From assembly GCF_002868735.1 (NCBI RefSeq), contig NZ_CP025611.1:1172501-1236500 (forward strand): DNA of 64,000 nucleotides, in the 5' to 3' direction. A program made the position numbers and the translations under genes. The notes beneath the pieces are model-generated. The model saw only the letters and a list, made by a program, of their open reading frames with translations. It made no database searches and was not told where the DNA came from. Numbering within the stretch: position 1 is the first letter of the stretch; every line of letters begins with the position of its first letter. This document shows, one piece after another, positions 21,785-47,836 of the stretch. The stretch is from Niveispirillum cyanobacteriorum (GTDB lineage: Bacteria > Pseudomonadota > Alphaproteobacteria > Azospirillales > Azospirillaceae).

Positions 21785-21801
21785 CAGCAATTGGACCATC
21801 G
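21785..21801 (-). promoter_or_regulatory. Motif-A site upstream of the TonB receptor
   Basis: Read toward the receptor this is CGATGGTCCAATTGCTGCC (with flanks to 21783-21801), matching the shared GTCYAATT core. It is about 60 bases before the start codon. Confidence 0.5.
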
Positions 21802-21826
21802 GGGCAGTCAGATATCCCTGACTGGG

Positions 21827-21843
21827 CGGGACAATTATCCTGA
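21827..21843. promoter_or_regulatory. Motif-B site between TonB receptor and sensor kinase
   Basis: CGGGACAATTATCCTGA. It matches CGGGACAATCATCCCGG upstream of the calcium-type PQQ dehydrogenase in 14 of 17 positions. The same regulator may bind both. Confidence 0.5.
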
Positions 21844-21920
21844 TACTTTTGGTCAGTGGCGGATGAGGGTGCGGCGGTATTAGCCTAGTATTTTCAGCCT
21901 GTTCTGAAGGGAATGACGGC

Positions 21921-23189
21921 TTGTCCCTGCGGTGGCGGATCATTCTGCTGGTAATGCTCGCGGCGGCCCTGTCGGCCCTGGCCGGATTGGCGGTGACAAT
22001 TGGAGGGGCTCGCGTCGCCGTGCGGGCAGAGACCGAGGCGGCACTCAATCAGGCCCGCACGCAACCCGCCGTGATTACCGGCCATGCCCGCCATGTCACC
22101 CACCTGTTCGTTCCCGACGGCACCGCTATCCCGCCCCCCAACCCCTCGCATCCCGGCGTGCCCAGCTGGTTCGTAGCCCTGATCTGGGATGGCGCTCCCG
22201 ATATCCTGCTGGCAGCACCCGGCGGCCAATGGCTGCTGCGCGCCGATCCGGTGGACGAGGTGGCGGAGGTCTGGTCCGATACGGCGGCGCTGGCCTGGAC
22301 GGCTTTGGTGATGCTGGCCCTGCTGCTGGCTGCCTTGCATGTGCTGGTCGGGCGTGCGCTGGCCCCATTGCACGGGTTTGCACAGGCCCTGGACCGGCTG
22401 GCGCAGGGTCAGGCCGCCGGCACGCCAACCGGGGACAATATCCCGGAACTGACCACCATCGGGCAGCGTATTGCCCATCTGGACCGGGAGTTGACAGTGG
22501 CACGCGCGGAAAACGCCGCCCTGTCACACAGCCTGATTGCCCTGCAGGATCAGGAACGTGCCCAACTGGCCAGGGACCTGCATGATGAGCTGGGGCCCAT
22601 GCTGTTCGGTATCCGGGTCGATGCCCATGCCATCGCGCGGGCCGCCGGCACGGGGCCGGTCCCCGCCGCCGACGCCATCGCGCGGGCCGATGCCATCGCC
22701 AATGCCGCTGCCGGTATCCGCGACCTGTCGCGCCGTATCCTGAACCGGCTGCGCCCCATGGGGCTGGACCATTTGCATGCGGCTGACATCCTGCGCGACC
22801 TGATGGACGGTCTGGCGCGACAGCATACGGACATCCGCTTCACCACCAGCCTGGATGACGATGCCTTCACCCGATCCGAAGCCGCCGACCTGACCCTGTA
22901 CCGCATCGCCCATGAAGCGCTGCTGAACGCCCTGCGCCATGGCAGGCCGACGCATGTCGGCCTTTCAATCGAGGGCGATGATCAGGGCGTAACCCTGCGC
23001 GTCACCGACAATGGCGGTGGCCTGGGCAATGACGCGCCGGCGGGCCATGGCATCATCGGCATGCGTGAACGGGTGCGTGCCCTGGGCGGGGATTTCACGA
23101 TCCTGACTGACGATGCCGGCCTGACCCTGGTGCAGGCCACCCTGCCTGTACCGCTTTCATCCCCCCAGACACAGGAACATCATGGCTGA
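21921..23189 (+). CDS. NarX-type sensor histidine kinase
   Basis: 422 residues with an apparent TTG start (GGGA eight bases upstream); no in-frame ATG would keep the first membrane segment. Layout: membrane helix about 7-27, periplasmic loop about 28-122, second membrane helix about 124-146, HAMP-like linker, HisKA_3 dimerisation box with the phospho-acceptor His221 in RAQLARDLHDELGPMLFG, and a C-terminal ATPase with HEALLNALRHG and DNGGGLGND, GHGIIGMRERV. It senses a periplasmic or membrane signal and phosphorylates the response regulator encoded next, which overlaps it by eight bases. The gene is divergent from a TonB receptor. Confidence 0.87.
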   Translation: MSLRWRIILLVMLAAALSALAGLAVTIGGARVAVRAETEAALNQARTQPAVITGHARHVTHLFVPDGTAIPPPNPSHPGVPSWFVALIWDGAPDILLAAPGGQWLLRADPVDEVAEVWSDTAALAWTALVMLALLLAALHVLVGRALAPLHGFAQALDRLAQGQAAGTPTGDNIPELTTIGQRIAHLDRELTVARAENAALSHSLIALQDQERAQLARDLHDELGPMLFGIRVDAHAIARAAGTGPVPAADAIARADAIANAAAGIRDLSRRILNRLRPMGLDHLHAADILRDLMDGLARQHTDIRFTTSLDDDAFTRSEAADLTLYRIAHEALLNALRHGRPTHVGLSIEGDDQGVTLRVTDNGGGLGNDAPAGHGIIGMRERVRALGGDFTILTDDAGLTLVQATLPVPLSSPQTQEHHG

Positions 23190-23802
23190 TGCCGCTCCCT
23201 TGATCCTGGTCGTTGATGACCATGCCATCGTGCGCGGCGGCTGCCGGCAATTGCTGGAACCGCCTTTGTCCCGCTTCCGTGTGGTGGAAGCCGCCGATGG
23301 CATAGCCGCCCGCGAACAGGTGGCTCGACATAATCCCGATCTGGTGGTGGCCGACTTGAACCTGCCCGGCACGCCCAGCGGACTGGACCTTGTCCGGGAA
23401 CTGACGGGCGCCGGGCGGCGGGTGGTGGTGTTTTCCATGCATGAAACACCGGGCATCGCAGGCCGCTGCCTGGAAGTGGGGGCCGCCGCTTATGTCACCA
23501 AATCGGACGCGCCCGACGCGCTGGTACAGGCGACGGAGGCGGCCCTGCGCGGTGACCGCTGGCTGTCCGCCGACATCGCCCGTGCCCTGGCCCTGCCCAA
23601 CCGTGAGGGTGACCTGACGGAGCGGGAGGCCGAACTCCTGGATATTCTGGCGGACACAACGGACCTGGATGATGTCGGACGCCGGCTGGGTATCAGCTAC
23701 AAAACCGTCGCCAATACCCTGGTCCGCCTGCGCAACCGCTTCGGCGTCCGACGCACCGCAGATCTGGTCAGGGTGGCGGTGCAGCGGCGGACCGGGGGTT
23801 AG
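23182..23802 (+). CDS. NarL-type response regulator, partner of the upstream kinase
   Basis: 206 residues. Receiver domain with the acidic pair in ILVVDDHAIVRGG and phospho-acceptor Asp58 in LVVADLNLPG, then the LuxR-type helix-turn-helix (LTEREAELLDILADTTDLDD, ISYKTVANTLVRLRNRFGV). Co-translated with the kinase. It is one of two LuxR-family regulators in the window, and a candidate for motif A or motif B. It overlaps the convergent apbE stop by four bases. Confidence 0.88.
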   Translation: MADAAPLILVVDDHAIVRGGCRQLLEPPLSRFRVVEAADGIAAREQVARHNPDLVVADLNLPGTPSGLDLVRELTGAGRRVVVFSMHETPGIAGRCLEVGAAAYVTKSDAPDALVQATEAALRGDRWLSADIARALALPNREGDLTEREAELLDILADTTDLDDVGRRLGISYKTVANTLVRLRNRFGVRRTADLVRVAVQRRTGG

Positions 23803-26858: not shown

Positions 26859-26878
26859 GGGAATTGGACTTTGGTTTC
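26859..26878 (-). promoter_or_regulatory. Motif-A site upstream of the NosR-like gene
   Basis: Read toward the gene: ACCAAAGTCCAATTCCCGCC-like text, core ATTGGACTTTGG on the plus strand at 26863-26874. One of the strongest copies of the shared motif, in a 79-base gap after the solute-binding gene. Confidence 0.6.
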
Positions 26879-26890
26879 AGGGGCGGCCCC

Positions 26891-28072
26891 TTACCGCCGG
26901 CACAGGCTCTCCCCTTCATCATCGCCCAGACTATCCAGCGGGGTGCGTTGGTGCAGGTAACCTTCCTGGGGCGAGACGGAGACCAGCAGGCGGGGAGAGG
27001 TGATCAGGATCGGTTGTCGCAACTGCCCGTCCCAAGGGCGAAAGCTCAACGCCTGTCCCTTGAACGCCGCCAGGGTGAAGCCGGGATCTTTCAGAGCCGC
27101 CGCAACCGCCACCGTATCCCCGCCCTTCACCTTGCCCGCCGCCTCCGTCACGGCGCGCACCGCCGTCCAGGCGGCGTAGTCGCGTTCGGTCATCACCCGT
27201 CCCGCCAGGACCTGAAACCGGTTCTGAAGCTGCGTGCCGCCCCATTGTTCAAACACCCGCGACCATGCGGTGGGCGTCAGTTCGGCGGTCCCCGCCACGG
27301 GGCGGGGCCGTGCCGCACGGTAGGACAGGAAATCACCGAACGCCCCGTCCTCGTCTGCAACAATCAGCACGTCATGGTCGGCCCCGCGCGTGAAGGTGGA
27401 CACCACGTCACGCTCATTGCTGAAGCCGTCATCGGTGCGGGAATGGCCGACATCGAAGGTCCAGTCCTTCTCCTCCACGATCTTCGCCCCCAGCCGTTTG
27501 GCGGTGCGGCGCACGGCATCGGCAAAGGGCTTGTCCCCCGGCCCCGCACCGGTGACCAGAAACCAGCTGGTCCAGCGCCGGGTAACCAGATACTGGCCCA
27601 GCGCGTCGGCCAGCATGCGCCGACTGGGGATGGTATGGAGCAGGTTGGCACGGCACTGCGCGTTGCGCAGGCCATCATCGCGGGCCCGTGCGTTAAGCAC
27701 CAATGCCCCCTTGGCCGCCGCCTTGTCCGCCACGCGCAGCAAGGCATCGCTGGGCAGATCGGCGACGATGAAGCGCACGCCCTGGCCCAGCAGGGCATCC
27801 ACATCACCCTCCCGCCCCTCCACCAGGGTAAACTCCTTCTTCAGGAACCGGCCCGTGACATTGCCATCCTGAATGCCCAGACGCGCGCCCATCAGCGCCC
27901 CGTCGCGGATAACGGGGTCCAGAAAGGAAAGGGGCGTGGCGGGCGGATCGTCGGTGCCGAGGAAGCCGATGGCAAGGCGGGCAATCCCCGCCCCCGGCCT
28001 CGCCGCCGGATCGGTGGCCAGCGCGGGAAGCGCACAGTATAAAGCCAGGGCAAGCAACAGGGCGCGCAGCAT
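26891..28072 (-). CDS. PQQ-alcohol-system ABC solute-binding protein (LutA-like)
   Basis: 393 residues with a signal peptide (MLRALLLALALYCALPALA). It belongs by overall pattern (IARLAIGFLGTDDPPATPLSFLDPVIRDGA, ARLGIQDGNVTGRFLKK, then DVGHSRTDDGFSNERDVVSTFTR) to the periplasmic binding-protein family annotated as part of PQQ-dependent alcohol dehydrogenase systems, type-I fold. In methylotrophs a similar protein (LutA) is needed for lanthanide use; assignment here is inference. It is transcribed before the NosR-like gene and divergent from the FIST gene. Confidence 0.8.
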   Translation of the reverse strand: MLRALLLALALYCALPALATDPAARPGAGIARLAIGFLGTDDPPATPLSFLDPVIRDGALMGARLGIQDGNVTGRFLKKEFTLVEGREGDVDALLGQGVRFIVADLPSDALLRVADKAAAKGALVLNARARDDGLRNAQCRANLLHTIPSRRMLADALGQYLVTRRWTSWFLVTGAGPGDKPFADAVRRTAKRLGAKIVEEKDWTFDVGHSRTDDGFSNERDVVSTFTRGADHDVLIVADEDGAFGDFLSYRAARPRPVAGTAELTPTAWSRVFEQWGGTQLQNRFQVLAGRVMTERDYAAWTAVRAVTEAAGKVKGGDTVAVAAALKDPGFTLAAFKGQALSFRPWDGQLRQPILITSPRLLVSVSPQEGYLHQRTPLDSLGDDEGESLCRR

Positions 28073-28143
28073 GTAACATCCCCCTCGTCATCGACGCGGA
28101 TCTCCCTCCCCGGATAGGCCCGCGCGCGCAGGCGTGACATTGC

Positions 28144-28162
28144 ACTATGGTCTAAGCGATGG
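28144..28162 (+). promoter_or_regulatory. Motif-A site in the solute-binding/FIST divergent gap
   Basis: ACTATGGTCTAAGCGATGG, with the GTCTAA core. It lies 72 bases before the minus-strand start and about 100 before the FIST start, so it could serve either side. Confidence 0.45.
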
Positions 28163-28264: not shown

Positions 28265-29413
28265 ATGCCGCAAATGCCAACCCGGTTGCTGGTGCGGGCC
28301 TGCACACATCTGGCGGACCCGGCGGCGGCCATCGACGAGCTTCACAGTAGCCTGACAGCCGCCGATCCGGCGCTGATCGTGCTGTTCTGCTCCTCCCACT
28401 ACGATCTGTCTGCCGTTGCAGCCTCGCTGCGCGCCCGCTTTCCGGGCGTGCCGGCCATCGGCTGCACGACGTCGGGGGAATTGACGCCGCTTGGCTATAT
28501 GGATGGCTCCATCACGGCGGTGGCCTTCCCCAAGGGTGATTTTGCGGCCACCATCGCGCGCTTCGATCATGTCAGCCGGTTTGAGATAGGCGACGCCAAG
28601 CCCAAGGTACGCGACCTTCTGGCCGAGGCGGAGGATACCGCCATCGAAATGGGCCCGGACGCCCGCCATGTCGCCCTGTTCCTGGTCGATGGGCTGTGCG
28701 TGAAGGAAGAACTGATTATCAGCGCCTTGCATGACGCGCTGGGTGGGCTGCCCCTGATCGGCGGGTCAGCGGGCGACGACATGCGGTTCGAGGCGACGCA
28801 TGTCCTGCATGACGGGGAATTCCATGTCGATGCCGGTGTCCTGCTGATCCTCACCACAACGCGGCCCTTCAAGGTCTTCCGCAATCAGCATTTCGTTCAT
28901 ACCGATCAGAAGATGGTGGTCACCCAGGCTGACCCCACCCGCCGCATCGTGACCGAAATTAATGCCGAGCCGGCGGCCCGCGAATATGCCCGCATGGTCG
29001 GGCTGGAAGGCGAGCCGCTGACGCCCATGATCTTCGCCTCATATCCCGTCGTGGTCCGGGTGGGCGGGGAATATTATGTCCGCTCCATCCAGAAGGTGAA
29101 CGAGGATGAAAGCCTGACCTTCTTCTGCGCCATTGATGAGGGCATCGTGCTGACGGTGGCGACCGGTGTGGATATCGTACGCAACCTTCAGGAACTGTTC
29201 GACGGTTTGACGGCAGAGATCGGGAAGCCCGATCTGATCCTGGGCTTTGACTGCGTTTTCCGCTCCCTGGAGTTGGAGCAGAAGCAGCTTAAACAGGCGG
29301 CGTCGAAGGTGCTGGCCAGCCAGAATGTCGTGGGCTTCTGCACCTATGGCGAACAGTATAACGCCATGCATGTGAACCAGACCTTCACCGGTCTCGCTAT
29401 AGGTGCGCGATGA
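28265..29413 (+). CDS. FIST-domain sensor protein (NosP-like)
   Basis: 382 residues with FIST_N (about residues 30-215: LIVLFCSSHYDLSAVAASLR, AIGCTTSGELTPLGYMDGS, GGLPLIGGSAGDDMRF) and FIST_C (about 215-365: EYARMVGLEGEPLTPMIFAS, GFDCVFRSLELEQKQ, NVVGFCTYGEQYNAMHVNQTF). No signal peptide; cytoplasmic. In Pseudomonas aeruginosa the FIST protein NosP binds heme and senses NO and is encoded beside the kinase NahK; the same pairing is seen here. Stop overlaps the kinase start as ATGA. Heme binding is inference. Confidence 0.85.
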   Translation: MPQMPTRLLVRACTHLADPAAAIDELHSSLTAADPALIVLFCSSHYDLSAVAASLRARFPGVPAIGCTTSGELTPLGYMDGSITAVAFPKGDFAATIARFDHVSRFEIGDAKPKVRDLLAEAEDTAIEMGPDARHVALFLVDGLCVKEELIISALHDALGGLPLIGGSAGDDMRFEATHVLHDGEFHVDAGVLLILTTTRPFKVFRNQHFVHTDQKMVVTQADPTRRIVTEINAEPAAREYARMVGLEGEPLTPMIFASYPVVVRVGGEYYVRSIQKVNEDESLTFFCAIDEGIVLTVATGVDIVRNLQELFDGLTAEIGKPDLILGFDCVFRSLELEQKQLKQAASKVLASQNVVGFCTYGEQYNAMHVNQTFTGLAIGAR

Positions 29414-31662
29414 GCGCCCTGCCCGATCCCGCCAACGACCTGCCCACGCCGGAGCAGGAGCGTATCGCGCTCTTGGAGCGGGAGAACTGGAAGCTGAAGC
29501 GCATCAACAAGGCGCTGATGGACCGGGTCGAACGGTCCATGGACTATCATGGCAGCGCCTTCTCCCTATTCCAGACCGCCATTGTCCTGGAAAGCCGGGT
29601 GCGCGAACGCACCCAGCAGGTGGAAGAAACCCTGCGCGAGCTGGAAGCGTCCAACGGGGAACTGGCGCGCGCCAAGGAAGCGGCGGAAACGGCGCAGACA
29701 CGGCTGGCCGAGGCCATTGAAAGCGTGAATGAGGGGTTTGCCCTGTTCGATGCCGATGACCGGCTGGTCCTGTGCAACCAGACCTATCTGTCGCTCTGGC
29801 CCGCCATCGCCGACCAGATCCGGCCGGGAATCAGTTTTGGTGAGATCGCGCAGATGGCGGTGTCGCGCGGGTCGGTGGTGCCGGATACCGCCGGCCCCGA
29901 CCGCTGGGTCCGCGAAAGGGTGGCGCAGCATGCAGGCGCCGACGGCACACATGTCCATGCCCTGGCCGACGGGCGCTGGATACAGATCAATGAACGGCGC
30001 ACCCGCGATGGTGGCATCGTCGGCATCTATACCGACATCACCGATGTGAAGGAACGCGACGCCCGCGACGGGCAGGAACGCATCCGCCTGATCACCGACG
30101 CCATGCCCGCCCTGATCGCCTATGTCGATGCGGAGGAAACCTACCGTTTCGTGAACCGCCGCTATGGCGAGATGTTCCGCCGCCCCCGGCATGAGATCGT
30201 GGGATCGACCATGCGCGAATTGCTGGGTGAGGAGGAATATCGCCGCCGCCGCCCGCATATCGGCACCGTCATGGCGGGACAGGAAACACAGTTCGACCTG
30301 GAATTCGATACGCGGTCGGGCAAACGCTATTCCCAGGCAACCTATGTCCCGCATTTCGCACCCGATGGCGCGGTGCTGGGCTTCTTCTCCCTGATCCAGG
30401 ATGTGACCGAACGCCGCCGCGCAGCCGAAGACCTGCGCGAAGCGAACGAAGGCCTGGAACGCCGCGTCGCCGAACGCACCGCCGCCCTGAAGCAGGAGAT
30501 TACCGAACGTCAGCAGATCGAGGAAAAGCTGCGGGAGGCGAAAACCGCCGCCGAACAGGCCAACCTGTCCAAGACCAAGTTCCTGGCCGCCGCCAGCCAC
30601 GACCTTCTTCAGCCGCTGAACGCGGCCCGCCTGTTCGTGTCCGCCTTGACCGAAGGAGAGCACGAGGCCGGCACGCGCATGCTGGTGGAAAAGACCGATG
30701 CCGCCCTGCTGTCGGTCGAAGACCTGCTGGAAGCGCTGCTGGATATTTCCAAGCTGGATGCTGGCGTGGTGCAGCCACAGTTGGATGATTTCCCGCTGGC
30801 CATGCTGCTGACATCCATGCAGGCCGAATATGCGCCGGTGGCCAAGGAACGCGGGCTGGATCTGCGCGTCCTGCCCTGCAAGGCCATTGTCCATACCGAC
30901 ATGCGCCTGCTCCGCCGCATCCTGCAGAACTTCGTCTCCAATGCCCTGCGGTACACCCGCACAGGCCGCGTACTGGTTGGCTGCCGACGGGTGGCGGACG
31001 GGGTGCGGATCGAGGTGCTGGACACCGGCCCCGGCATCCCGGCGGACAAGCTGGATGAAGTGTTTGAGGAGTTCCGCCGTCTGGAAGGCACCGACCGTCC
31101 AGCCGGGCGCGACCGGGGCATGGGGCTGGGCCTTGCCATCGTTCAGCGGGCGGGCCGCATGCTGAACACGCCCATCGGCCTGCGCTCCCGCGTCGGGAAG
31201 GGATCGGCCTTTACCGTCACGGTACCACTGGGCAGCAAGAAACGCCCCGCCCCGCCCAGTGCCACGCGCAGCACAGCACCCGCCAGCCCCCTGACCGGTG
31301 CGCGTATCCTGGTCATCGATAATGAACAGGCCATTCTGGACGGGATGGGCGCGCTGCTGCGCGGCTGGGGCTGTCAGGTGCAGGTGGCACCCTGCGCCGA
31401 CAGCGCCATGGACGCCCTGCCCGCCCTGGGTGGCTGGCCCGATGTGATCATTGCTGATTACCATCTGGAAAACGGCGCCATCGGCGTCGACGCCATCGCC
31501 CGCATCATCCAGGCGCGCGGCCATGACATCCCCGCCATGGTCATCACGGCCAACCGCACGGCGGAAATCCATGAACGGGTGCAGCACGACGGCTATGCCC
31601 TGCTGACCAAACCCGTAAAGCCCGCACAATTGCGGGCCTTGGTGACACAGCTGATCGGGTAG
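29410..31662 (+). CDS. NahK/ErcS'-like hybrid histidine kinase
   Basis: 750 residues, no membrane segments. Order: coiled coil (about 20-100), PAS (about 100-215, AESVNEGFALFDADDRLVL), PAS (about 225-340, MPALIAYVDAEETYRFVNRR), coiled coil, HisKA with His397 in FLAAASHDLLQPLNAARLF, ATPase (NFVSNALRYTRTGRVLVG, DTGPGIPADKLDE, GMGLGLAIVQRAG), and a C-terminal receiver with Asp683 in VIIADYHLENG. This is the layout of NahK, reported in Pseudomonas as ErcS' in ethanol-oxidation control. It may be inhibited or activated by the FIST protein. Output partner not adjacent; the LuxR regulator at 36318 is a candidate. Confidence 0.87.
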   Translation: MSALPDPANDLPTPEQERIALLERENWKLKRINKALMDRVERSMDYHGSAFSLFQTAIVLESRVRERTQQVEETLRELEASNGELARAKEAAETAQTRLAEAIESVNEGFALFDADDRLVLCNQTYLSLWPAIADQIRPGISFGEIAQMAVSRGSVVPDTAGPDRWVRERVAQHAGADGTHVHALADGRWIQINERRTRDGGIVGIYTDITDVKERDARDGQERIRLITDAMPALIAYVDAEETYRFVNRRYGEMFRRPRHEIVGSTMRELLGEEEYRRRRPHIGTVMAGQETQFDLEFDTRSGKRYSQATYVPHFAPDGAVLGFFSLIQDVTERRRAAEDLREANEGLERRVAERTAALKQEITERQQIEEKLREAKTAAEQANLSKTKFLAAASHDLLQPLNAARLFVSALTEGEHEAGTRMLVEKTDAALLSVEDLLEALLDISKLDAGVVQPQLDDFPLAMLLTSMQAEYAPVAKERGLDLRVLPCKAIVHTDMRLLRRILQNFVSNALRYTRTGRVLVGCRRVADGVRIEVLDTGPGIPADKLDEVFEEFRRLEGTDRPAGRDRGMGLGLAIVQRAGRMLNTPIGLRSRVGKGSAFTVTVPLGSKKRPAPPSATRSTAPASPLTGARILVIDNEQAILDGMGALLRGWGCQVQVAPCADSAMDALPALGGWPDVIIADYHLENGAIGVDAIARIIQARGHDIPAMVITANRTAEIHERVQHDGYALLTKPVKPAQLRALVTQLIG

Positions 31663-35571: not shown

Positions 35572-35640
35572 GGTAAATTAGACTTTGTGTGAAGAAACCC
35601 GTCCCGGACGGGTTGCCCCGACACCATGGTGTAATTGCGC
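35572..35640. promoter_or_regulatory. Divergent promoter: two motif-A sites and a palindrome
   Basis: Toward the aldehyde dehydrogenase: CACAAAGTCTAATTTACCG (35572-35589, minus). Toward the cupredoxin: CACCATGGTGTAATTGCGC (35622-35640, plus). Between them AACCCGTCC-C-GGACGGGTT (35596-35614) is a perfect palindrome and may be a third protein-binding site. Confidence 0.6.
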
Positions 35641-35702: not shown

Positions 35703-36149
35703 ATGATGACGCGCCCGTACATCCTGGCCGCCGCCCTGGCGGCACAGGTCCTGATCGCCGCCACGGCAGAGGCCGCGACGCATGAGGTGAAGATGCTGAA
35801 TCAGGGGCCGGGCGGGGCCACCATGGTGTTTGAACCCGCCATGCTGACCATCGCGCCGGGCGACACGGTACGCTTCATTCCCACCGACAAAAGCCATAAT
35901 GCCGAGGCCATCAAGGGCATGCTGCCCGAGGGCGTGGAACCCTTTACCGGCAAGATGAATGAGGAGATCACGGTCACCTTCGACCAGCCCGGCCTTTACG
36001 GCTTCAAATGCAAGCCGCATTACGCCATGGGCATGGTCGGCGTCATCGTCGTGGGCGATCCGGTGAATGTCGAACAGGCGAAGGCCGTGAACCATCCTGG
36101 CAAGGCGAAGGAACTGCTTCTGGGGCTGATGGCGAAGCTGCGGGGGTGA
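35703..36149 (+). CDS. Pseudoazurin-like periplasmic blue copper protein
   Basis: 148 residues, signal peptide to about residue 24 ([19 protein letters not shown]). The cupredoxin core is [33 protein letters not shown], and the copper ligands are His in TDKSHNAEA and Cys, His and Met in [19 protein letters not shown]. It carries electrons in the periplasm. Its place among PQQ enzymes and its motif-A site make it a candidate electron acceptor for a quinoprotein dehydrogenase; pseudoazurins are better known from denitrification and methylamine oxidation, so this is inference. Confidence 0.88.
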
Positions 36150-36317: not shown

Positions 36318-37001
36318 CTACTGCGCCGCCGCCCGTGCCGAGACCTGGGGCGTGCCGGGGGCCGGGGCGAAGTTCACCTTGTTGGCCAGGATCACGGCCT
36401 GGGTGCGGCTGAATACCCGCATCTTCTGCAGGATGGCGGAGACATGGGCCTTTACGGTCGTCTCCGTCACATCCAGCTCATAGGCGATTTCCTTGTTCAA
36501 CCGGCCGGCGACGACCAGTTCCAGCACCTTGCGCTGCTGGGGCGTCAGCGTGTCGATGCGGCGGATGATCTCCTGATCCTCCCCCGACGGGGCCGGGGCC
36601 GGCGCATCCTCCAGATCGTCCGGCACATAGACATCGCCGCCCAGCACCTGATGCAGGGCCTTGGCGATCATGCCGCGCGGCAGCGATTTCGGCACGAACC
36701 CCGCCGCACCATGGCGCAGCGCCTCGTTCACGACCTGCCGGTCGCAGGCCGCCGACACCATGACCACCGGCAGTGCCGGATAACGCGCCCGCAGGGAGGC
36801 CAGGCCGGCGAACCCGTTATTGCCGGGCATGTTCAGGTCCAGCAGGACCAGATCAAAATCGCCCTCACGGTCGACGATGCGGATAACCTCGTCCAGGTCG
36901 GACGCCTCGAACAGCTCGCACCGGTCCAGTGCGACGGCAACAACGGTGCGCAACCCGTCGCGCACCAGCGGATGATCATCCGCGATCAGAACCTTGCCCA
37001 T
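36318..37001 (-). CDS. LuxR-family response regulator (ErbR/AgmR/PedR-like)
   Basis: 227 residues. Receiver domain with VLIADDHPLVRDG and Asp55 in LVLLDLNMPGN; LuxR-type helix-turn-helix (LTPQQRKVLELVVAGRLNKE, VTETTVKAHVSAILQKMRVF). Size and position beside a PQQ dehydrogenase match the regulators known as ErbR/AgmR in P. aeruginosa and PedR in P. putida. No kinase is adjacent. It is divergent from the calcium-type dehydrogenase across 417 bases. It is one candidate binder of motif A or B. Confidence 0.87.
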   Translation of the reverse strand: MGKVLIADDHPLVRDGLRTVVAVALDRCELFEASDLDEVIRIVDREGDFDLVLLDLNMPGNNGFAGLASLRARYPALPVVMVSAACDRQVVNEALRHGAAGFVPKSLPRGMIAKALHQVLGGDVYVPDDLEDAPAPAPSGEDQEIIRRIDTLTPQQRKVLELVVAGRLNKEIAYELDVTETTVKAHVSAILQKMRVFSRTQAVILANKVNFAPAPGTPQVSARAAAQ

Positions 37002-37418
37002 GCCCTTGTCCTCCCCGTCGCCCTGATGGCCGCGCCGATTTGATTATTTTCTGGGCGTAAACAGCCTACTCGCGTGGGGAAAGACGGACAATCGCGGGGC
37101 CGGCGGCAGGATACGGTTCTTTAGTATAAGGTGCCCCGCCCGCCCGCCGGAGGCCGGGCCGGTTGCGGCGCGGGTGGGCAGGATACGGGACAATCATCCC
37201 GGCCAATCCGGGAAATATATCACGAATATACGGGAAACAACTCACGAGAACATTACAATAAAATCCCGGTCATCCAGAATATAAATCATCCTTTTCCTAC
37301 AAAGTACAATTTGCGATCCCCGTCAATGATGACAGGGTTTCCCCGCAGAACCGCAAGGCCGACGGGTGTGGGTCGGGCGGTTTCTTCCGAATTTCAATAA
37401 TCGGGGAACAGGGAGAGA
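37002..37418. promoter_or_regulatory. Long divergent control region with motif-B array
   Basis: Three related units occur at 37186-37202 (CGGGACAATCATCCCGG), 37209-37225 (CGGGAAATATATCACGA) and 37231-37247 (CGGGAAACAACTCACGA), spaced 23 and 22 bases, so on one face of the helix. A degenerate motif-A site may lie at 37117-37135. The rest is AT-rich around 37245-37320. No ORF here is credible. GGGAGAG before 37419 is the dehydrogenase ribosome site. Confidence 0.6.
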
Positions 37419-40206: not shown

Positions 40207-41952
40207 TTACGCCTTCGGCAGCTTGAAGACCCAAAGCGAACCACCCTGATTGATATGCTGGATCGACTTCGCCACTTCACCACCCCACAGCGGCACGGCA
40301 CCGCCCCAGCCGGACAGGACGGCCACATATTGTTCGCCATCCTGTTCCCAGGTGACGGGGCTGCCCACCACACCGGAACCGGTATTGAACTTCCATACTT
40401 CCTTGCCCGTCTGCGCGTCGAAGGCCTTCAGGTAACCTTCGGGCGTGCCGGTAAAGACCAGATTGCCGGCGGTGGTCAGAACACCGCCCCACAGCGGGGC
40501 CTTGTTCTTGTATTCCCACTTCGTCTCGCCCGTGGCCGGGTCGATGGCGCGCAGCACGCCGATATGGTCCTCATACAGCGGCTTGATGTTGAAGCCGGCG
40601 CCCAGATAGGCGGCACCCTTCTTGTAATTGATACCTTCGTTCCAGATATCCATGCCCCATTCATTGGCGGGGACATAGAACAAGCCCGTATCCTGGCTGT
40701 AGGCCATGGGCATCCAGTTCTTGCCACCCAGGAAGGACGGGGCGGCGAAGACCGACTTGCCCTTAGTCTCACCCTGCGCCGCCTCCACCGGGTTGCCGGG
40801 ACGGTTCGCCGGGTCATAGATCGGGCGGCCCTTCTTGTCGAAACCCTTGGCCCAGGTGATCTTCGACACGAACGGCGTGGCGGAGATGAACTTGCCGTTG
40901 GTGCGGTCCAGCACGAAGAAGAAGCCGTTGCGGTCGGCCTTGGCCCCGGCCTTGATGGTTTTGCCATCCTTCTTCAGGTCGAAGGGGATGAACTCATTCA
41001 CCCCGTCAAAGTCCCAGCCATCATGCGGTGTGGTCTGGAAATGCCACTTGATCTCGCCTGTATTCGGGTCGATGGCCAGGGTGGACGAAGTGTAGAGATT
41101 GTCACCCGGCCGCAGATGGCTGTTCCACGGGGCCGGGTTGCCGGTGCCCATATAAATCAGCTTGGTTTCCGGATCATAGGTGCCGCCCAGCCAGGTGGCG
41201 CCGCCGCCCTGCTTCCACATGTCACCCTGCCAGGAAGCGTTCAGCTTGCCCGTCATGGTGCTGTCCTTGCCATTCAACTGCCCGACATGGCCCTCGATGG
41301 TGGGGCGCGACCAGATCAGTTCACCCGTCTTGGCGTCGCGCGCCTCCACCTTGCCAATGATGCCGAATTCGCCGCCGGAATTGCCGGTGATGATCTTACC
41401 ATCCACGATCATCGGGGCGGCGGTATAGGAATATCCCGCCTCGTAATCGGCCATCTTCTTGGACCAGACGACCTTGCCCGTATCCTTGTTCAGGGCCACC
41501 AGCTTGGCGTCGAGCGTGCCGAAATAGACCATGTCGCCATAGATGGCGGCACCCCGGTTCACCACATCGCAGCAGGGCATGATGCCTTCGGGCAGGCGGG
41601 CATCATACTGCCACTTCTCCTCGCCCGTGCGGGCATCCACTGCCCAAAGGCGGCTGTAGGAGCCTGTGACATAGATGGTGCCGTCATGGACGATGGGCTG
41701 TGCCTCCTGCCCGCGCTGCTTCTCCCCACCAAAGGAGAAGGAGAAGGCGGGCACCAGCTTGGACACGTTCTCGGTATTCAGCACCTTCAGCGGGCTGTAG
41801 CGCTGCGCCTGGGGGCCCATGCCATAGGTCAGCACGTCGCCGGTGGTGGCGGCATCGTTCATCAAGTCGACGTCGGTAGGTCCGGCGGCGAAGGTCGGCG
41901 TGGCGGCGGCCAGGCCCAGCATGGCGCAGGTTGCCAGCAGAATGCGCTTCAT
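40207..41952 (-). CDS. PQQ-dependent alcohol dehydrogenase, lanthanide type
   Basis: 581 residues, periplasmic (signal peptide [22 protein letters not shown]). Same fold as the other dehydrogenase: disulfide Cys127-Cys128 ([10 protein letters not shown]), repeated propeller segments ([13 protein letters not shown]). The decisive motif is [12 protein letters not shown]: catalytic Asp314 with Asp316 two residues on. This extra Asp coordinates the trivalent ion in XoxF and PedH. It should therefore need a lanthanide with PQQ. Start at 41952 follows AGGGAGA; the longer frame to 42033 lacks a leader. Motif A lies about 195 bases upstream, after the solute-binding gene. Confidence 0.92.
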
Positions 41953-42140
41953 GGCGTCTTGTCTCCCTGTAAGGGGCCGGGGCGATGGCATGATGCCCGG
42001 CCCGGCTTCCGGCGAAATCCGCCCGCAAGCCACCGGTCGCCGCAGCCGGGGAAGCGGCCACGACGGTGACGGATTTTCAAAGGCCTGGGATACGGAATGG
42101 TTTCAACAACGAGGCCAAAGGTAACCCCGCCCGGCAAAGG

Positions 42141-42158
42141 GCAAAATTGAACCTTGGT
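42141..42158 (-). promoter_or_regulatory. Motif-A site upstream of the lanthanide-type dehydrogenase
   Basis: Read toward the gene: ACCAAGGTTCAATTTTGCCC; core at 42146-42157. It touches the stop codon of the preceding solute-binding gene and leaves a leader region of about 190 bases to the dehydrogenase start, in which I see no ORF. Confidence 0.55.
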
Positions 42159-43020: not shown

Positions 43021-43031
43021 GATGGATGTCC

Positions 43032-43538: not shown

Positions 43539-43605
43539 AATTGGACTTTGGTGCCACGCCCAAATCCACGGCCCGGCAACACCCTTGTCCCATGGTCTAA
43601 TGGCC
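43539..43605. promoter_or_regulatory. Divergent promoter with two motif-A sites
   Basis: Toward cytochrome c: CACCAAAGTCCAATTAGGGC with core AATTGGACTTTGG at 43539-43551. Toward the beta-propeller gene: CCATGGTCTAATGGCC at 43590-43605. Each is about 75-90 bases before its start codon. This is the clearest divergent example of the motif. Confidence 0.65.
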
Positions 43606-43677: not shown

Positions 43678-44640
43678 ATGCGGGCATATTTGCTGCTAGC
43701 GCTGCTGGCCTCGGGCCTGGCGGGACCGGTGGGGGCCGGGACGCTGTATGTCTCCAACGAGCGTGACAACAGCCTGACCCTGATCGACACCGATACTTTG
43801 ACGGTCAAATCCACAATCAAGGTCGGCGCCCGCCCGCGCGGCATCACCCTCTCCGCCGATGGCAAGCAGCTTTATATCTGCGCCAGCGACGATGACACGG
43901 TTCAGGTGCTGGACATCGCGACGGGCAAGATCCTGCACAACCTGCCCTCGGGCGATGATCCCGAACAATTCGCGCTGGCCCCCGACGGCACCCATCTGTT
44001 CATCGCGAACGAGGATGACAATGTCGTCACCGTCGTCGATATCCCCACCCGTTCCGTCGCTTACCAGATTGACGTGGGGGTGGAGCCGGAGGGCATGGCC
44101 GTTAGCCCGGATGGCAGATGGGCCGTCAACACGTCCGAAACCACCAACATGCTGCATTGGATCGACACCGCCACCCGGCAGCTGGTGGACAATACCCAGG
44201 TTGATGCCCGCCCCCGCCACGCCGAATTCACAGCTGATGGCAAATCGCTGTGGGTCTCCGCCGAAATCGGCGGCACAGTCAAGGTGATCGACGTCGCCAG
44301 CCGACAGGTGAAACAGACCATTGCCTTCGCCGTGAAGGGCGTGCAGGCCGACAAGGTGCAGCCCGTGGGCATCAAACTGTCAAGGGACGGCAAACTGGCC
44401 TTCATCGCACTCGGCCCCGCCAACCATGTTGCGGTGGCGGACACGGCCACCTATCAGATAAAGGCCTATCTGCTGGTGGGCCGCCGTGTCTGGCACATGG
44501 CGCTGTCACCCGACGGCAAGACTTTGTTCACCACCAACGGCGTCTCCAACGATGTCTCCGTCATCGATGTGGAGGGGCTGAAAGTCGTTAAATCCATTCC
44601 TGTCGGTCGCTACCCCTGGGGTGCCGTGGTGGTGCCATGA
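43678..44640 (+). CDS. PQQ-system YVTN beta-propeller protein
   Basis: 320 residues, signal peptide to about residue 20, then seven repeated blades with TLYVSNERDNSLTLIDTDTL, RGITLSADGKQLYICASDDD, PEGMAVSPDGRWAVNTSETT and MALSPDGKTLFTTNGVSNDV. This is the beta-propeller annotated as associated with PQQ-dependent catabolism. In P. putida and Methylobacterium the related Ped/Lut units are needed for growth on low lanthanide. Its stop overlaps the ABC ATPase start as ATGA. Metal binding is inference. Confidence 0.88.
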   Translation: MRAYLLLALLASGLAGPVGAGTLYVSNERDNSLTLIDTDTLTVKSTIKVGARPRGITLSADGKQLYICASDDDTVQVLDIATGKILHNLPSGDDPEQFALAPDGTHLFIANEDDNVVTVVDIPTRSVAYQIDVGVEPEGMAVSPDGRWAVNTSETTNMLHWIDTATRQLVDNTQVDARPRHAEFTADGKSLWVSAEIGGTVKVIDVASRQVKQTIAFAVKGVQADKVQPVGIKLSRDGKLAFIALGPANHVAVADTATYQIKAYLLVGRRVWHMALSPDGKTLFTTNGVSNDVSVIDVEGLKVVKSIPVGRYPWGAVVVP

Positions 44641-45377
44641 CGGCGGCACTGGCGGTTGATCAACTGGGTTTCAGCTATGGCAAGGGCGGCTTCGCATTGC
44701 GCGGAGTCGCCTTTGCCGTTGAAACGGGCCGCTTTACGGCGCTGCTGGGCGCCAACGGAGCCGGCAAATCCACCCTCATGGGCCTGCTGACCCGATTGTT
44801 CACGCCGGACACGGGCGCCATCCTTATTGGCGGCCATGATCTGCGCCATCGTCCGGGTGCAGCGCTCGCCGCCATGGGTGTCGTGTTTCAGCAGCCGACC
44901 CTGGATCTGGACCTGACCGTGCGCCAGAACCTGACCTACGCCGCTGGCCTGCGCGGCTTGTCGGCCCGGCAGACGGCGCCACGCATCACCGAACTGCTGG
45001 ACCGGTTCGCGCTCTCCGACCGGGCGGGTGACAAGGTGCGGCTGCTGAATGGCGGCCACCGCCGTCGGGTGGAACTGGCCCGTGCCCTACTGCACCGCCC
45101 GCCCCTGCTGATCCTGGATGAACCCACCGTGGGCCTGGACGCCCCCTCGCGCTGCGATCTGGTGGATCATGTACACCGGCTGTGCACCGACGATGGCGTC
45201 GCGGTCCTCTGGGCCACGCATCTGTTTGATGAGGTGCGGGACGGCGACGATGTCGTGCTGCTGCATCGCGGTCAGGTGCGCGCCACCGGCGGCGTCCCCG
45301 ACCTTCTGTCCCGCAGCGGTGCCGGCACGCTGAGGGAAGCGTTCGGGACCTTGACCAGACCGGAGGGAACGCCATGA
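44637..45377 (+). CDS. PQQ-system ABC transporter ATPase
   Basis: 246 residues. Walker A LLGANGAGKSTLMGLL, Q-loop VFQQPTLDLDLT, Walker B LLILDEPTVGLD and switch ATHLFDEV. The signature loop is LNGGHRRRVELARALLHR, where LSGG is replaced by LNGG, a feature of this PQQ-associated subfamily. It energises the permease encoded next, with which it overlaps by four bases. Whether the pump imports or exports is unclear: the permease is of the ABC-2 export type. Confidence 0.88.
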   Translation: MTAALAVDQLGFSYGKGGFALRGVAFAVETGRFTALLGANGAGKSTLMGLLTRLFTPDTGAILIGGHDLRHRPGAALAAMGVVFQQPTLDLDLTVRQNLTYAAGLRGLSARQTAPRITELLDRFALSDRAGDKVRLLNGGHRRRVELARALLHRPPLLILDEPTVGLDAPSRCDLVDHVHRLCTDDGVAVLWATHLFDEVRDGDDVVLLHRGQVRATGGVPDLLSRSGAGTLREAFGTLTRPEGTP

Positions 45378-46180
45378 TGGCTTACCTGCGCGCCCTGAAG
45401 GCCGTCATCTGGCGGGAGATGCTGCGTTTCCTGCATCAACGCGAACGGTTCATCTCCGCCCTCGTCCGCCCGCTGGTCTGGCTATTCATCTTCGCCGCCG
45501 GTTTCCGCGCAGCCCTGGGCATTTCGGTGCAGCCGCCCTACGACACCTACATCACCTATGAGACCTATGTGCTGCCCGGCCTTGCCGCCATGGTCCTGCT
45601 GTTCAACGGCATGCAAAGCAGTCTGTCCATGGTCTATGACCGGGAAATGGGCAGCATGCGCCTGCTGCTGACGGCCCCCCTGCCGCGCGAATTCCTGCTG
45701 ACGGCGAAGCTGTTGGCCGGCGCCGTGGTCGGGCTGGCGCAGGTCGCGGCCTTCCTGGCCATCGCGGCCCTGACCGGGCTGGTGGTACCGGCGATGGGAT
45801 ACCTCACCGTTATCCCGGCCCTGCTGCTGACGGGTCTCATACTGGGGGCAGTGGGGATGCTGCTGTCCAGCACCATCCGGCAGCTGGAGAATTTCGCCGG
45901 CGTGATGAATTTCGTCATCTTCCCCGCCTTCTTCCTGTCATCCGCGCTCTATCCCCTGTGGAAACTGCGGGAGGGCAGCGAATGGCTTTATCTGCTGGCC
46001 CGTTTCAACCCTTTCACCCATGCCGTCGAACTGATCCGCTTCGCGCTTTATGGACAGGTGGATTGGGCGGCGGCGGGATGGGTGGCGGGGGCGACAATGG
46101 TCTTCCTCACCCTTTCCTTCTGGGCCTACAACCCCGCCCGTGGCCTGATGCCGCGCAAGGCCGGGGGTGGCGAGGGCTGA
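45374..46180 (+). CDS. PQQ-system ABC-2-type permease (PedC-like)
   Basis: 268 residues, six membrane helices. LKAVIWREMLRFLHQRERFI at the start, then PLVWLFIFAAGFRAALG, MVLLFNGMQSSLSMVYDREMGSMRLLLTAPLPREFLL and FPAFFLSSALYPLWKLREGSE are typical ABC-2 elements. Members of this family are annotated as PQQ-alcohol-system permeases. Last gene of the three-gene propeller-ATPase-permease unit, followed by hairpins. Confidence 0.88.
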   Translation: MMAYLRALKAVIWREMLRFLHQRERFISALVRPLVWLFIFAAGFRAALGISVQPPYDTYITYETYVLPGLAAMVLLFNGMQSSLSMVYDREMGSMRLLLTAPLPREFLLTAKLLAGAVVGLAQVAAFLAIAALTGLVVPAMGYLTVIPALLLTGLILGAVGMLLSSTIRQLENFAGVMNFVIFPAFFLSSALYPLWKLREGSEWLYLLARFNPFTHAVELIRFALYGQVDWAAAGWVAGATMVFLTLSFWAYNPARGLMPRKAGGGEG

Positions 46181-46194
46181 TCCCCAACACAAAA

Positions 46195-46250
46195 CGGCCA
46201 CCCGGTATTCACCGGGCGGCCGCCAGGAACGGGGGGAGCCGAAGCCCCCC
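46195..46250. terminator. Two hairpins between convergent ABC and porin genes
   Basis: CGGCC-ACCCGGT...ACCGGGC-GGCCG (46195-46222) and GGGGGG-AGCCGAAG-CCCCCC (46231-46250). They fill the 79-base gap and probably end transcription from both sides. Confidence 0.55.
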
Positions 46251-46259
46251 ACGGGAGGA

Positions 46260-47624
46260 TCAGAAGAACAGAATGGCGCCCAGCGCCACCGTGTCAGAGG
46301 TGGCCTTGTTGGGGCCCTGCGCCTCTGCCTTGGTGTTGATATATTCACCTACCAGCGTGACCCAGTCGGTCAGGCCGTAATGGACCGTGCCCACCCAGGA
46401 CTTGTTGGTGTCCAGCAGGGTCGGGTTCACCTCCCCCTTGGCCAGATCCAGATGGCTTTCACCATAGGAGGCGGCCAAGGTCAGCTTGTCGATGACATAG
46501 CTGCCCTGGATATAGAAGCCGTCGCTGTCACGCTTGTTGCCGCGCGCATCGGCGGACAGGATGAACAGGCCCGTGGTCCCGATCCCTTCGCCAGTATAGT
46601 AATAGCCCAGCAGGCTGGCATTCCCGAACCCGACCTTGGCCCCAACATCGTAACCAGTGCCCTTGTAATCCGGCCCGCCGGCAACCGCCGGGTCATGGTC
46701 CTGGGTCAGCAGGCCCGCCCACAGTTTGGTGGTCACGGCACCCGCCTTGCCCTCATACGACGCCTTGGCCTGGAAACCGGGCGTGTCGTTCAGCTCGTTC
46801 TGGCCGGCAGTGGCCAGCGGCTGGAAGATGCCCGCCGACAGCTTGAAGCCGTTCATGTCCGGCGTGGTGTAGGTGATCTGCGGCTGGAAATCGGTATAGA
46901 TGTAGCCCAGCCCGATACGGCCCAGCGAGGTGTTGGACGGGGTGGCATTGCCCGCCGCCGTGCCCACGCCCAGAAGCGTGACATCCGACAGGATGGCATC
47001 CGCCCCGAACAGCCCGATATCCCGGCCGATCTTGATCTCGCCAAAGCCCTTCTTGCCGAAGGTCAGGAAGGTCTGGCGGAAATCAATGCCCGACGTGGAC
47101 AGCGCCGTCGGCGACCCGCCGGAATTGGCACCGCCCGCCCAACTGACACTGTTGATGCCGGGATACATGCCGAAATGGGCGCCCACGTCCCAACCCGCTT
47201 GCTGCGTCGTCACATCGAATTTCAGGAAACCGGGCAGCAGGCCGTTGCGCACCGAGCTGGTGTCATTGCCGCCCACGCTGGCCAGACCGCCGACCACATT
47301 CTTGGTCGCCCCCGGCTTGTCGGCATTGTCACTGACATAGAAGCCGTTGACGGAGCCAGAGATCTGCACATTCACAGTCCCGACCTTGAAGCCCACGCCC
47401 GTATCGGCGGCTTCCAGAACCTTGCCGCTGGCTGCTGCTGGGGCGGCTTTCACCTCCTCCGCACGGCGGGTGGACAGGGCCTGGAATTCCTGTTCTGTCA
47501 GGATGCCCTTGGCCTTCAGCTGTTTCAGCAGCTCATCCGTCGTATCGGCAGACGCCGATCCCACCAGACCCAGGCCCAACGCCAGGCCGCACGCTCCCAC
47601 ACGCAGAACATTGCGCAGACGCAT
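46260..47624 (-). CDS. Outer-membrane porin
   Basis: About 454 residues. Signal peptide (MRLRNVLRVGACGLALGLGLVGSASA), a short coiled segment (DELLKQLKAKGILTEQEFQAL) and a beta-rich body with porin-like strands (VNVQISGSVNGFYVSDNAD, GEIKIGRDIGLFGADAILSD, SLGRIGLGYIYTDFQPQITY) ending in ALGAILFF with the terminal Phe. The pattern fits a trimeric general or alcohol-related porin. Start at 47624 follows GGGAGGGAG. Two motif-A sites upstream suggest it belongs to the alcohol regulon; substrate not known. Confidence 0.82.
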   Translation of the reverse strand: MRLRNVLRVGACGLALGLGLVGSASADTTDELLKQLKAKGILTEQEFQALSTRRAEEVKAAPAAASGKVLEAADTGVGFKVGTVNVQISGSVNGFYVSDNADKPGATKNVVGGLASVGGNDTSSVRNGLLPGFLKFDVTTQQAGWDVGAHFGMYPGINSVSWAGGANSGGSPTALSTSGIDFRQTFLTFGKKGFGEIKIGRDIGLFGADAILSDVTLLGVGTAAGNATPSNTSLGRIGLGYIYTDFQPQITYTTPDMNGFKLSAGIFQPLATAGQNELNDTPGFQAKASYEGKAGAVTTKLWAGLLTQDHDPAVAGGPDYKGTGYDVGAKVGFGNASLLGYYYTGEGIGTTGLFILSADARGNKRDSDGFYIQGSYVIDKLTLAASYGESHLDLAKGEVNPTLLDTNKSWVGTVHYGLTDWVTLVGEYINTKAEAQGPNKATSDTVALGAILFF

Positions 47625-47767
47625 TTCTCCCTCCCACATGATGATTAGACCGCAGTGGCGGACAAGGACTTGGACTTCGCGCCGCGAATATTTCCGGCAC
47701 GTTCAAAAACCCAGTTGATTTGGCGAAGATTTCGCACCGTCACTTTAGGGGGCGGGGGAACAGCCCG

Positions 47768-47836
47768 ATATTGGACGTTGGTTCATTGAACTTTAGGGCC
47801 AGGAAACGGCCCATCCTTCCTTGGTCTAATATGGCC
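47768..47836. promoter_or_regulatory. Divergent promoter with three motif-A sites
   Basis: Toward the porin: CCAACGTCCAATAT (47768-47781) and CCTAAAGTTCAATG (47784-47797). Toward the ABC importer: CCTTGGTCTAATATGGCC (47819-47836), about 60-75 bases before its ATG. The porin sites are about 145-170 bases from its start, so its leader is longer. Confidence 0.6.

What the first reader, a model, noticed from the sequence alone, without database searches (positions are those of the whole stretch)
21785..47836. Shared motif A in about eleven promoters defines a candidate PQQ/alcohol regulon
Reading toward the gene, these sites align: 21783-21801 (TonB, CGATGGTCCAATTGC), 26859-26878 (NosR-like, CCAAAGTCCAATTCC), 28144-28162 (ACTATGGTCTAAGC), 35572-35589 (ALDH, CACAAAGTCTAATTT), 35622-35640 (cupredoxin, CACCATGGTGTAATTG), 42141-42158 (Ln-type dehydrogenase, CCAAGGTTCAATTTT), 43539-43551 (cytochrome c, CCAAAGTCCAATTAG), 43590-43605 (propeller, CCATGGTCTAATGG), 47768-47781 and 47784-47797 (porin), and 47819-47836 (ABC importer, CCTTGGTCTAATATGG). 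Consensus about CCAWRGTCYAATT, often followed by G-rich text. Nearly all lie 50-110 bases before a start and point at it. The two LuxR-type regulators in the window are natural binders. I know no published motif of this form for ErbR/PedR-type regulators, but I cannot search.
Basis: partly seen in the sequence, partly recalled or inferred. Interest (0 to 1): 0.85.

Follow-up and report, generated by a model that had tools for sequence, protein, structure and literature searches.

The report
Operator box of alcohol-oxidation gene cluster
A short DNA sequence repeated in front of about a dozen genes for PQQ-dependent alcohol oxidation looks like the landing site of the cluster's own on-switch protein, and versions of it sit in front of the same genes in many distant bacteria.

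Summary
The motif is real. It lies a fixed 22-23 bp upstream of a -10-like TA, so it covers about -46 to -35: a class II activator box. In the own 6.05 Mb genome all 5 places matching box plus -10 with at most one mismatch lie in this 26 kb cluster; the bare motif is not enriched genome-wide (57 against 74 control). The region is a ped/exa-type cluster. Motif discovery without a template recovers the box in Azospirillaceae relatives and a sister box (cTacTACc.agGtActA) before orthologous genes in a gamma/beta set. A matrix from clusters finds it before the separately encoded pqq operon in 21 of 26 loci, against 15 of 520 shuffles. The likely binder is the response regulator at 36318-37001, not that at 23182: its recognition helix is shared with cluster regulators elsewhere, and among other alphas boxes track a linked copy (26 of 37 against 1 of 18 promoters). 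A close motif is published: the ACTU box of the paralogue CrbR/ErdR. I found no published AgmR/ErbR/PedR1 box in the library searched. Whether this regulator is a strict AgmR orthologue is unresolved, and binding is inferred, not shown.

The parts
21789..21801 (-). box CGATGGTCCAATT before TonB receptor gene 19459-21729; no TA at standard -10 spacing (weak member)
26862..26874 (-). box CCAAAGTCCAATT, -10 TTAGCCT 20 bases on, before NosR-like gene (start near 26811)
28134..28150 (-). palindromic box ATTGCACTATGGTCTAA / TTAGACCATAGTGCAAT between the PedA1-type binding-protein gene (26891-28072 -) and nosP (28265 +)
35576..35588 (-). box ACAAAGTCTAATT before exaC-type aldehyde dehydrogenase; conserved in relatives; -10 weak
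35624..35636 (+). box CCATGGTGTAATT before pseudoazurin gene 35703-36149; conserved in relatives; no TA at standard spacing
42145..42157 (-). box CCAAGGTTCAATT, -10 TTACCTT, before PQQ alcohol dehydrogenase 40207-42033
43539..43551 (-). box CCAAAGTCCAATT, -10 TTACGCT, before cytochrome c-550 PedF
43590..43602 (+). box CCATGGTCTAATG, -10 ATAGGGTT, before propeller-ABC operon (43678-46180)
47784..47796 (-). distal box CTAAAGTTCAATG, 15 bp upstream of the proximal one
47819..47831 (+). box CCTTGGTCTAATA, -10 TAGCAT, before NMT1-like importer operon 47894-
36318..37001 (-). NarL/LuxR-type response regulator, AgmR/ErbR-like: proposed binder of the box
28265..29413 (+). NosP (FIST-domain sensor), 492.6 bits over cut-off 450
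29410..31662 (+). NahK/ErcS-family hybrid histidine kinase (473.9 over 400): candidate partner kinase of the regulator
21921..23802 (+). second two-component pair (PedS2/PedR2-like position); unlikely binder

Best explanation
The motif is the operator of the cluster's own NarL/LuxR-type response regulator (36318-37001, AgmR/ErbR/PedR1-like). When phosphorylated, probably by the NosP-linked hybrid kinase encoded at 28265-31662, it binds as a dimer to the imperfect inverted repeat T(T/A)NTACCAWRGTYYAAT lying at about -51 to -35, replaces the poor -35 element, and recruits sigma-70-type RNA polymerase whose -10 lies 22-23 bp downstream. It thereby switches on PedF, the PQQ dehydrogenases, ExaC-type aldehyde dehydrogenase, pseudoazurin, the propeller/ABC system, the NMT1-like importer, the porin-like gene, the NosR-like gene and the PedA1-type gene together. 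Shown by computation: the box, its fixed spacing, its concentration in the cluster, its conservation before orthologous genes, and its presence before pqq in other genomes. Inferred: binding, direction (activation), phosphorylation partner and inducing signal.
For: Window enrichment. In the own genome 5 of 5 box-plus-minus-10 places with at most 1 mismatch lie in the 26 kb, and 10 of 57 bare hits. In 20 Azospirillaceae cluster loci 51 hits against 8 for the reversed pattern; in 20 loci from the rest of the phylum 9 against 1. Fixed -10: in 32 non-redundant relative sites TA is at offset 22 in 13 and at 21-23 in 23. Template-free EM finds TtntaCcAaaGTccAAT in 72 Azospirillaceae upstreams (log-likelihood ratio 239 against 55 and 57 shuffled) and cTacTACc.agGtActA in 150 gamma/beta upstreams (335 against 55 and 65): PedA1-type 20 of 20, FIST 15 of 16, PedF 10 of 11, second PQQ dehydrogenase 10 of 11. 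pqq promoter, never used in training: 21 of 26 loci, 15 of 520 shuffles, 1 of 26 inside pqqB. Binder: recognition helix ETTVKAHVSAIL identical in the window regulator and Pseudomonadaceae cluster regulators, nearly so in ErdR, different in the 23182 regulator. In non-Azospirillaceae alphas plus one Azospirillaceae locus, promoters with a site: 26 of 37 where an RR1-like gene is within 20 kb, 1 of 18 where not; by locus 8 of 8 against 1 of 9. Literature: AgmR activates the ped cluster and the separate pqq operon (review PMC12997753, passages); CrbR/ErdR acts on an inverted repeat of the same form at -52 to -36 (PMC5715377, passages).
Against: No binding or expression data for this organism. Bare motif not enriched genome-wide (57 against 74); at 2 mismatches box plus -10 equals its control (26 and 26). 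Three of the six exact bare hits lie outside the cluster and none looks functional: two are inside long ORFs, one faces no gene start. L152 has a 74% identical regulator but no site; L165 and L166 have no hit at 1 mismatch. Gamma loci with RR2-type but no RR1-type gene in the fetched stretch still have sites (7 of 7 promoters, 4 loci), as do 15 of 19 promoters in 8 gamma loci with neither; their genomes were not searched for a distant copy. EM on other alphas converged on coding sequence, not on the box. The tree does not resolve whether the window regulator groups with Pseudomonadaceae AgmR-like or ErdR proteins. Promoters and loci are not phylogenetically independent.
Confidence: 0.82

Rival explanations
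1. The box is bound by an ErdR/CrbR-type paralogue encoded elsewhere (best candidate contig 3 at 113083), not by the cluster regulator, or by both.
For: The published CrbR ACTU sites fit the Azospirillaceae matrix in the same register: 8 rows of the paper's table that I chose score 6.5-20.8, the 99.9% point of random 17-mers being 5.9. ErdR shares most of the recognition helix. In P. aeruginosa an erdR mutant has lower pqqA, exaB and exaA transcripts (PMC8546858, passages). The contig 3 paralogue scores best of the own genome with the ErdR model (220.8 bits).
Against: Boxes track a cluster-linked regulator rather than an unlinked one: unlinked ErdR-like genes occur in most of the alpha genomes without boxes. 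The contig 3 paralogue is under the ErdR cut-off of 390. The own acs gene has no box within its proximal 400 bp. Review PMC12997753 (passages): erdR deletion in P. putida affects acetate, not ethanol, growth.
Confidence: 0.12
2. The box is bound by the second regulator (23182-23802, PedR2/ExaE-like).
For: It is in the cluster and is a LuxR-type response regulator. In A. brasilense a LuxR-type regulator 45% identical to PedR2 acts with sigma-54 on exaA (stated in PMC6115532, passage; the primary paper is not held).
Against: Different recognition helix. Non-Azospirillaceae alpha loci with RR2-type and no RR1-type gene have 0 of 5 promoters with a site, one such Azospirillaceae locus 0 of 1. Azospirillaceae clusters with boxes show no RR2-type gene in the fetched stretches. 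In the gamma set the first PQQ dehydrogenase and RR2-type promoters rarely have the box (1 of 4, 1 of 12). But 4 gamma loci with RR2 only have 7 of 7.
Confidence: 0.03
3. The box is the -35 element of an alternative sigma factor, for example an ECF factor such as RpoE6 of A. brasilense.
For: Fixed spacing to a -10-like element; RpoE6 raises exaA and pqqA expression (PMC12826043, passages).
Against: RpoE6 promoter elements are CGCCAG and CGTGAG 16 apart, unlike the box and TAnnnT. The box is an inverted repeat, also used as a palindrome between divergent genes, in tandem 15 or 22 bp apart, and with the -10 spacing of a site upstream of a sigma-70 -35.
Confidence: 0.02
4. Chance similarity picked out by eye.
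For: The bare motif is no commoner than its reversed control in the genome.
Against: 0 of 100 shuffles in the window, conservation, template-free recovery, pqq prediction.
Confidence: 0.01

Closest known systems
ACTU motif of CrbR/ErdR (acetate utilisation; Sepulveda and Lupas 2017, PMC5715377, passages seen)
   Same: Imperfect 17-bp inverted repeat, e.g. TACTACCAAAGTCTAAT and TACTACCATCGTCGAAT; same register as the Azospirillaceae matrix; sits at -52 to -36 just upstream of an RpoD promoter; bound by a paralogous LuxR-type response regulator
   Different: Serves acs, actP and related acetate genes; here it serves PQQ alcohol-oxidation genes, the own acs has no proximal box, and the cluster regulator is under the ErdR cut-off (199 against 390 bits)
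AgmR/ErbR/PedR1 of the Pseudomonas ped/exa cluster (review PMC12997753, passages seen)
   Same: LuxR-type regulator in a cluster with NosP, NahK/PedS1-type kinase, PedA1A2BC, PedF, PQQ dehydrogenases; identical recognition helix core in Pseudomonadaceae cluster regulators; the sister box precedes the same genes and pqq
   Different: Orthology not resolved by the tree; box sequence differs (GTYYAAT right half against GGTACTA); no operator found for AgmR in the library searched
EraR and sigma-54 at exaA of Azospirillum brasilense (Singh 2017; paper not held, cited in PMC6115532; the 17-bp dyad is from memory of its abstract)
   Same: LuxR-type regulator acting on a dyad upstream of a PQQ alcohol dehydrogenase in the same bacterial family
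   Different: Sigma-54 promoter and a regulator said to be 45% identical to PedR2; the boxes here sit at sigma-70-type spacing. Could not be compared letter by letter

Membership tests
AgmR/ErbR/PedR1 response regulator | receiver plus LuxR-type HTH | tested here: met
   Response_reg and GerE over cut-off
AgmR/ErbR/PedR1 response regulator | encoded in a ped/exa cluster with NosP and NahK-type kinase | tested here: met
   NosP 492.6/450, NahK-ErcS family 473.9/400, PedF 203/122, ExaC 948/900, PQQ-ABC binding 436/413.6; PQQ-ABC repeats, ATP and PedC over cut-offs
AgmR/ErbR/PedR1 response regulator | one clade with Pseudomonadaceae cluster regulators, apart from ErdR | tested here: inconclusive
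   forks 89/82 and 91/86, not starred
AgmR/ErbR/PedR1 response regulator | controls transcription of ped and pqq genes | not testable with these tools
   known for Pseudomonas (PMC12997753, passages)
CrbR/ErdR response regulator | NCBIfam ErdR score over 390 bits | tested here: not met
   199.3 bits; ErdR of two Pseudomonadaceae genomes scores 448 and 436
ACTU box | 17-bp inverted repeat immediately upstream of a sigma-70 promoter | tested here: met
   template-free motif and -10 spacing; published sites fit the matrix
ACTU box | located before acetate genes acs/actP | tested here: not met
   no match with up to 2 mismatches in the proximal 400 bp of the own acs; actP not tested
class II activator site | fixed spacing overlapping -35, with a -10 downstream | tested here: met
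   TA at offset 21-23 in 23 of 32 relative sites; transcription starts not mapped

The most novel reading that the evidence does not exclude
One operator code, an inverted repeat of the form TACNACCWWGGTNNNA, has been kept by the AgmR-like and ErdR-like regulators since before the split of the alpha- and gammaproteobacterial ped clusters. The cluster regulator's regulon can be read from DNA alone across Proteobacteria, including the pqq operon and nosP-nahK, and AgmR and ErdR compete for or share boxes, which would explain their reported hierarchy in ethanol oxidation.
Probability: 0.5. Interest if true: 0.65.

Novelty: new variant of a known kind. Interest (0 to 1): 0.55.

Why it matters
AgmR/ErbR/PedR1 has long been known to drive PQQ alcohol oxidation, but in the searches made here I found no DNA site for it. 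A defined box lets the regulon be read in any genome, predicts which PQQ and rare-earth-related genes belong to it, gives a ready EMSA and reporter test, and raises the testable point that AgmR-like and ErdR-like regulators share an operator code.

Tried and rejected
Rejected: sigma-54 promoter (the boxes have TA/-10 spacing of the sigma-70 type in window and relatives), RpoE6 promoter, PedR2-like binder, chance. Known RNA elements and tRNAs: none in the window.

Led nowhere: EM on non-Azospirillaceae alphas found a coding repeat upstream of the propeller gene. Four-base dyad counting was noisy in alphas but gave CCTA/CTAC...CCAAGG words in the gamma/beta set. The candidate outside sites were not convincing. 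PqqU membership of the TonB receptor: 84.8 bits against cut-off 1200. Papers not held: Singh 2017 and a DAP-seq study of P. aeruginosa regulators that I recalled; either could hold an AgmR- or EraR-type site, so the claim that no AgmR box is in print rests and passages only.

Rows left out of counts: relatives left out L147-L149 (nearest to the window) and reduced 46 hits to 32 by similarity; one search removed redundant upstreams and capped the gamma/beta set at 150; one search left out L206, L207, L214, L223, L252, L259 (7 of 16 promoters with a site, genomes not searched) and L241 (no usable upstream), and counted one Azospirillaceae locus, L166, among the unlinked. In L172 the linked regulator is only the third best RR1 match of its genome.


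Full report
OBSERVATION. The pattern CCAWRGTCYAATT with up to two mismatches occurs 14 times in the 64 kb window, 4.98 being expected, and 0 of 100 shuffles reach 14. Reading outwards from each site, several share a -10-like element: the dinucleotide TA 22 bases after the 12-base box (7 of 36 loose hits in the window). I saw this in these sites first, so it is a hypothesis there. The test is in relatives: of 32 non-redundant sites from 20 Azospirillaceae cluster loci (the three nearest to the window left out), TA is at offset 22 in 13, at 23 in 8 and at 21 in 2, against a TA frequency of 0.019 per base in the window. The box therefore occupies about -46 to -35 (with its left half-site about -51), where a class II activator binds. 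This geometry assumes that the TA is the start of the -10; no transcription start was mapped.

GENOME-WIDE. The window lies in a 6.05 Mb, five-contig genome. With at most one mismatch CCAWRGTCYAAT occurs 57 times against 74 for the reversed control, so the bare motif is not enriched overall. But 10 of the 57 fall in this 26 kb (0.43% of the genome). With the -10 added, all 5 places with at most one mismatch are in the cluster; at two mismatches the total equals the control, 26 and 26, with 7 of the 26 in the cluster. These concentrations are partly circular, since the pattern came from the cluster. Of six exact bare hits three are in the cluster; of the other three, two lie inside long ORFs and one faces no gene start (read by eye).

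WHAT THE REGION IS. Family models over their cut-offs: NosP, NahK/ErcS-family hybrid kinase, ExaC, pseudoazurin, PQQ-ABC binding protein, cytochrome c-550 PedF, PQQ-ABC propeller, PQQ-ABC ATPase, PedC and two PQQ alcohol dehydrogenases. The NosR-like protein (567 of 1000) and the TonB receptor (PqqU 84.8 of 1200) are under theirs. By content this is the ped/exa cluster described for Pseudomonas (review PMC12997753, passages), with the regulator at 36318 in the place of AgmR/PedR1 and the pair at 21921-23802 in the place of PedS2/PedR2. The family is inferred to be Azospirillaceae from the nearest named loci (Skermanella, Azospirillum); the genus was not established.

CONSERVATION. Forty cluster loci were fetched. 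At one mismatch the bare box gives 51 hits against 8 reversed in the 20 Azospirillaceae loci and 9 against 1 in the other 20. It lies before the same genes: PedF, propeller, dehydrogenase, aldehyde dehydrogenase, pseudoazurin, NMT1-like importer. EM motif discovery given no template finds TtntaCcAaaGTccAAT in 72 non-redundant Azospirillaceae upstreams (log-likelihood ratio 239; shuffled 55 and 57), with PedF 7 of 7, PedA1-type 7 of 9, dehydrogenase 7 of 10, ALDH 3 of 3, NMT1 4 of 6, but propeller only 2 of 11 and the regulator's own gene 5 of 14. In 150 gamma/beta upstreams it finds cTacTACc.agGtActA (335; shuffled 55 and 65), with PedA1-type 20 of 20, nosP 15 of 16, PedF 10 of 11, second PQQ dehydrogenase 10 of 11, ALDH 6 of 9, but first PQQ dehydrogenase 1 of 4, RR2-type 1 of 12 and the regulator's own gene 2 of 21. 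In other alphas EM failed, settling on coding sequence, though single sites such as TACGACCAAGGTTCAATA are visible. In 30 gamma upstream regions that matched a two-box expression, all had the same 15-base gap, which puts the distal and proximal boxes 22 bp apart (the number of regions scanned was not printed).

A PREDICTION TESTED. AgmR is reported to control the separately encoded pqq operon (PMC12997753, passages). A matrix averaged from the Azospirillaceae and gamma motifs, trained on no pqq sequence, has a match of at least 11.5 bits in the 700 bp before pqqB (where pqqA and its promoter lie) in 21 of 26 loci from 24 genomes, against 15 of 520 shuffles and 1 of 26 windows inside pqqB; a TA follows at offset 23-26 in most. 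One of the 21 (L341) is weak for its base composition, and several loci are close relatives of each other. Five loci lack a site (L318, L326, L331, L336, L340).

WHICH REGULATOR. The recognition helix of the 36318 regulator (ETTVKAHVSAIL) is identical in the Pseudomonadaceae cluster regulators and nearly so in ErdR (EATVKAHVTAIF), while the 23182 regulator has KTVANTLVRLRN. Among non-Azospirillaceae alphas plus one Azospirillaceae locus, 26 of 37 promoters have a site where an RR1-like gene is within 20 kb of the propeller gene and 1 of 18 where it is not; by locus 8 of 8 against 1 of 9 (Fisher 6e-6 and 4e-4, promoters and loci not independent). Shuffled sequences pass the same threshold in 73 of 1185. 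Against this: four gamma loci with an RR2-type and no RR1-type gene in the fetched stretch have sites in 7 of 7 promoters, and eight with neither in 15 of 19; I did not search their genomes. L152 has a 74% identical regulator and no site. The tree separates RR2-type proteins cleanly (100/100) but does not resolve the window regulator, Pseudomonadaceae AgmR-like and ErdR proteins from each other with starred support. By the ErdR model the window regulator scores 199 bits, the ErdR proteins 436-448, the cut-off being 390. I therefore call it AgmR/ErdR-type, AgmR-like by place.

LITERATURE. The ACTU motif of CrbR/ErdR in P. fluorescens is an imperfect inverted repeat at -52 to -36, required for activation (PMC5715377, passages). 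Eight rows of its table, chosen by me, score 6.5-20.8 with the Azospirillaceae matrix in the same register, the 99.9% point of random 17-mers being 5.9. So this is a variant of a known kind of operator on a different regulon. For AgmR/ErbR/PedR1 itself I found no published box (and passages of the 2026 review), but two likely papers were not held. ErdR also affects pqqA, exaB and exaA transcripts in P. aeruginosa (PMC8546858, passages), which a shared box would explain.

VERDICT. Binding, activation and the signal are inferred.

Noticed in passing
own genome (G000) and same-genus G070, G071: No pqqB over cut-off in these three of the 29 genomes searched (also G380, G286), and no pqqE over cut-off in G000, although the PQQ dehydrogenase cluster is kept: the organism may depend on imported PQQ. 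PqqA, C and D were not searched.
   Followed up: partly
window 19459-21729: TonB receptor with a weak box upstream; resembles siderophore receptors (120.9 bits) and PqqU (84.8 bits), both far under cut-off. A PQQ or metal importer would fit.
   Followed up: partly
L208, L209, L216 and other gamma loci, PedF promoter: Two boxes 22 bp apart (TACTACCAAGG and CCAAAGCAGCAT), the proximal one resembling the alpha box and the Azospirillum pqq box.
   Followed up: partly
window 37110-37129 (-): TTATACTAAAGAACCGT, a degenerate box-like sequence upstream of the regulator gene, kept in same-genus loci L148-L150: possible autoregulation.
   Followed up: no
L156, L159, L161 upstream of the 40207-type dehydrogenase: In Azospirillum and Skermanella-like loci this promoter has a different sequence (e.g. 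TTCGACTATTTGCCAAT), perhaps the sigma-54/EraR type reported for A. brasilense exaA.
   Followed up: no
L152 (G066): A 74% identical regulator beside kinase and ABC genes but no box at the usual places; only AAGTCCGTTAGTCTCAT before the regulator.
   Followed up: no
gamma loci, nosP (FIST) promoters: 15 of 16 non-redundant nosP-nahK promoters carry the sister box, placing the nitric-oxide sensor pair inside the alcohol regulon.
   Followed up: partly
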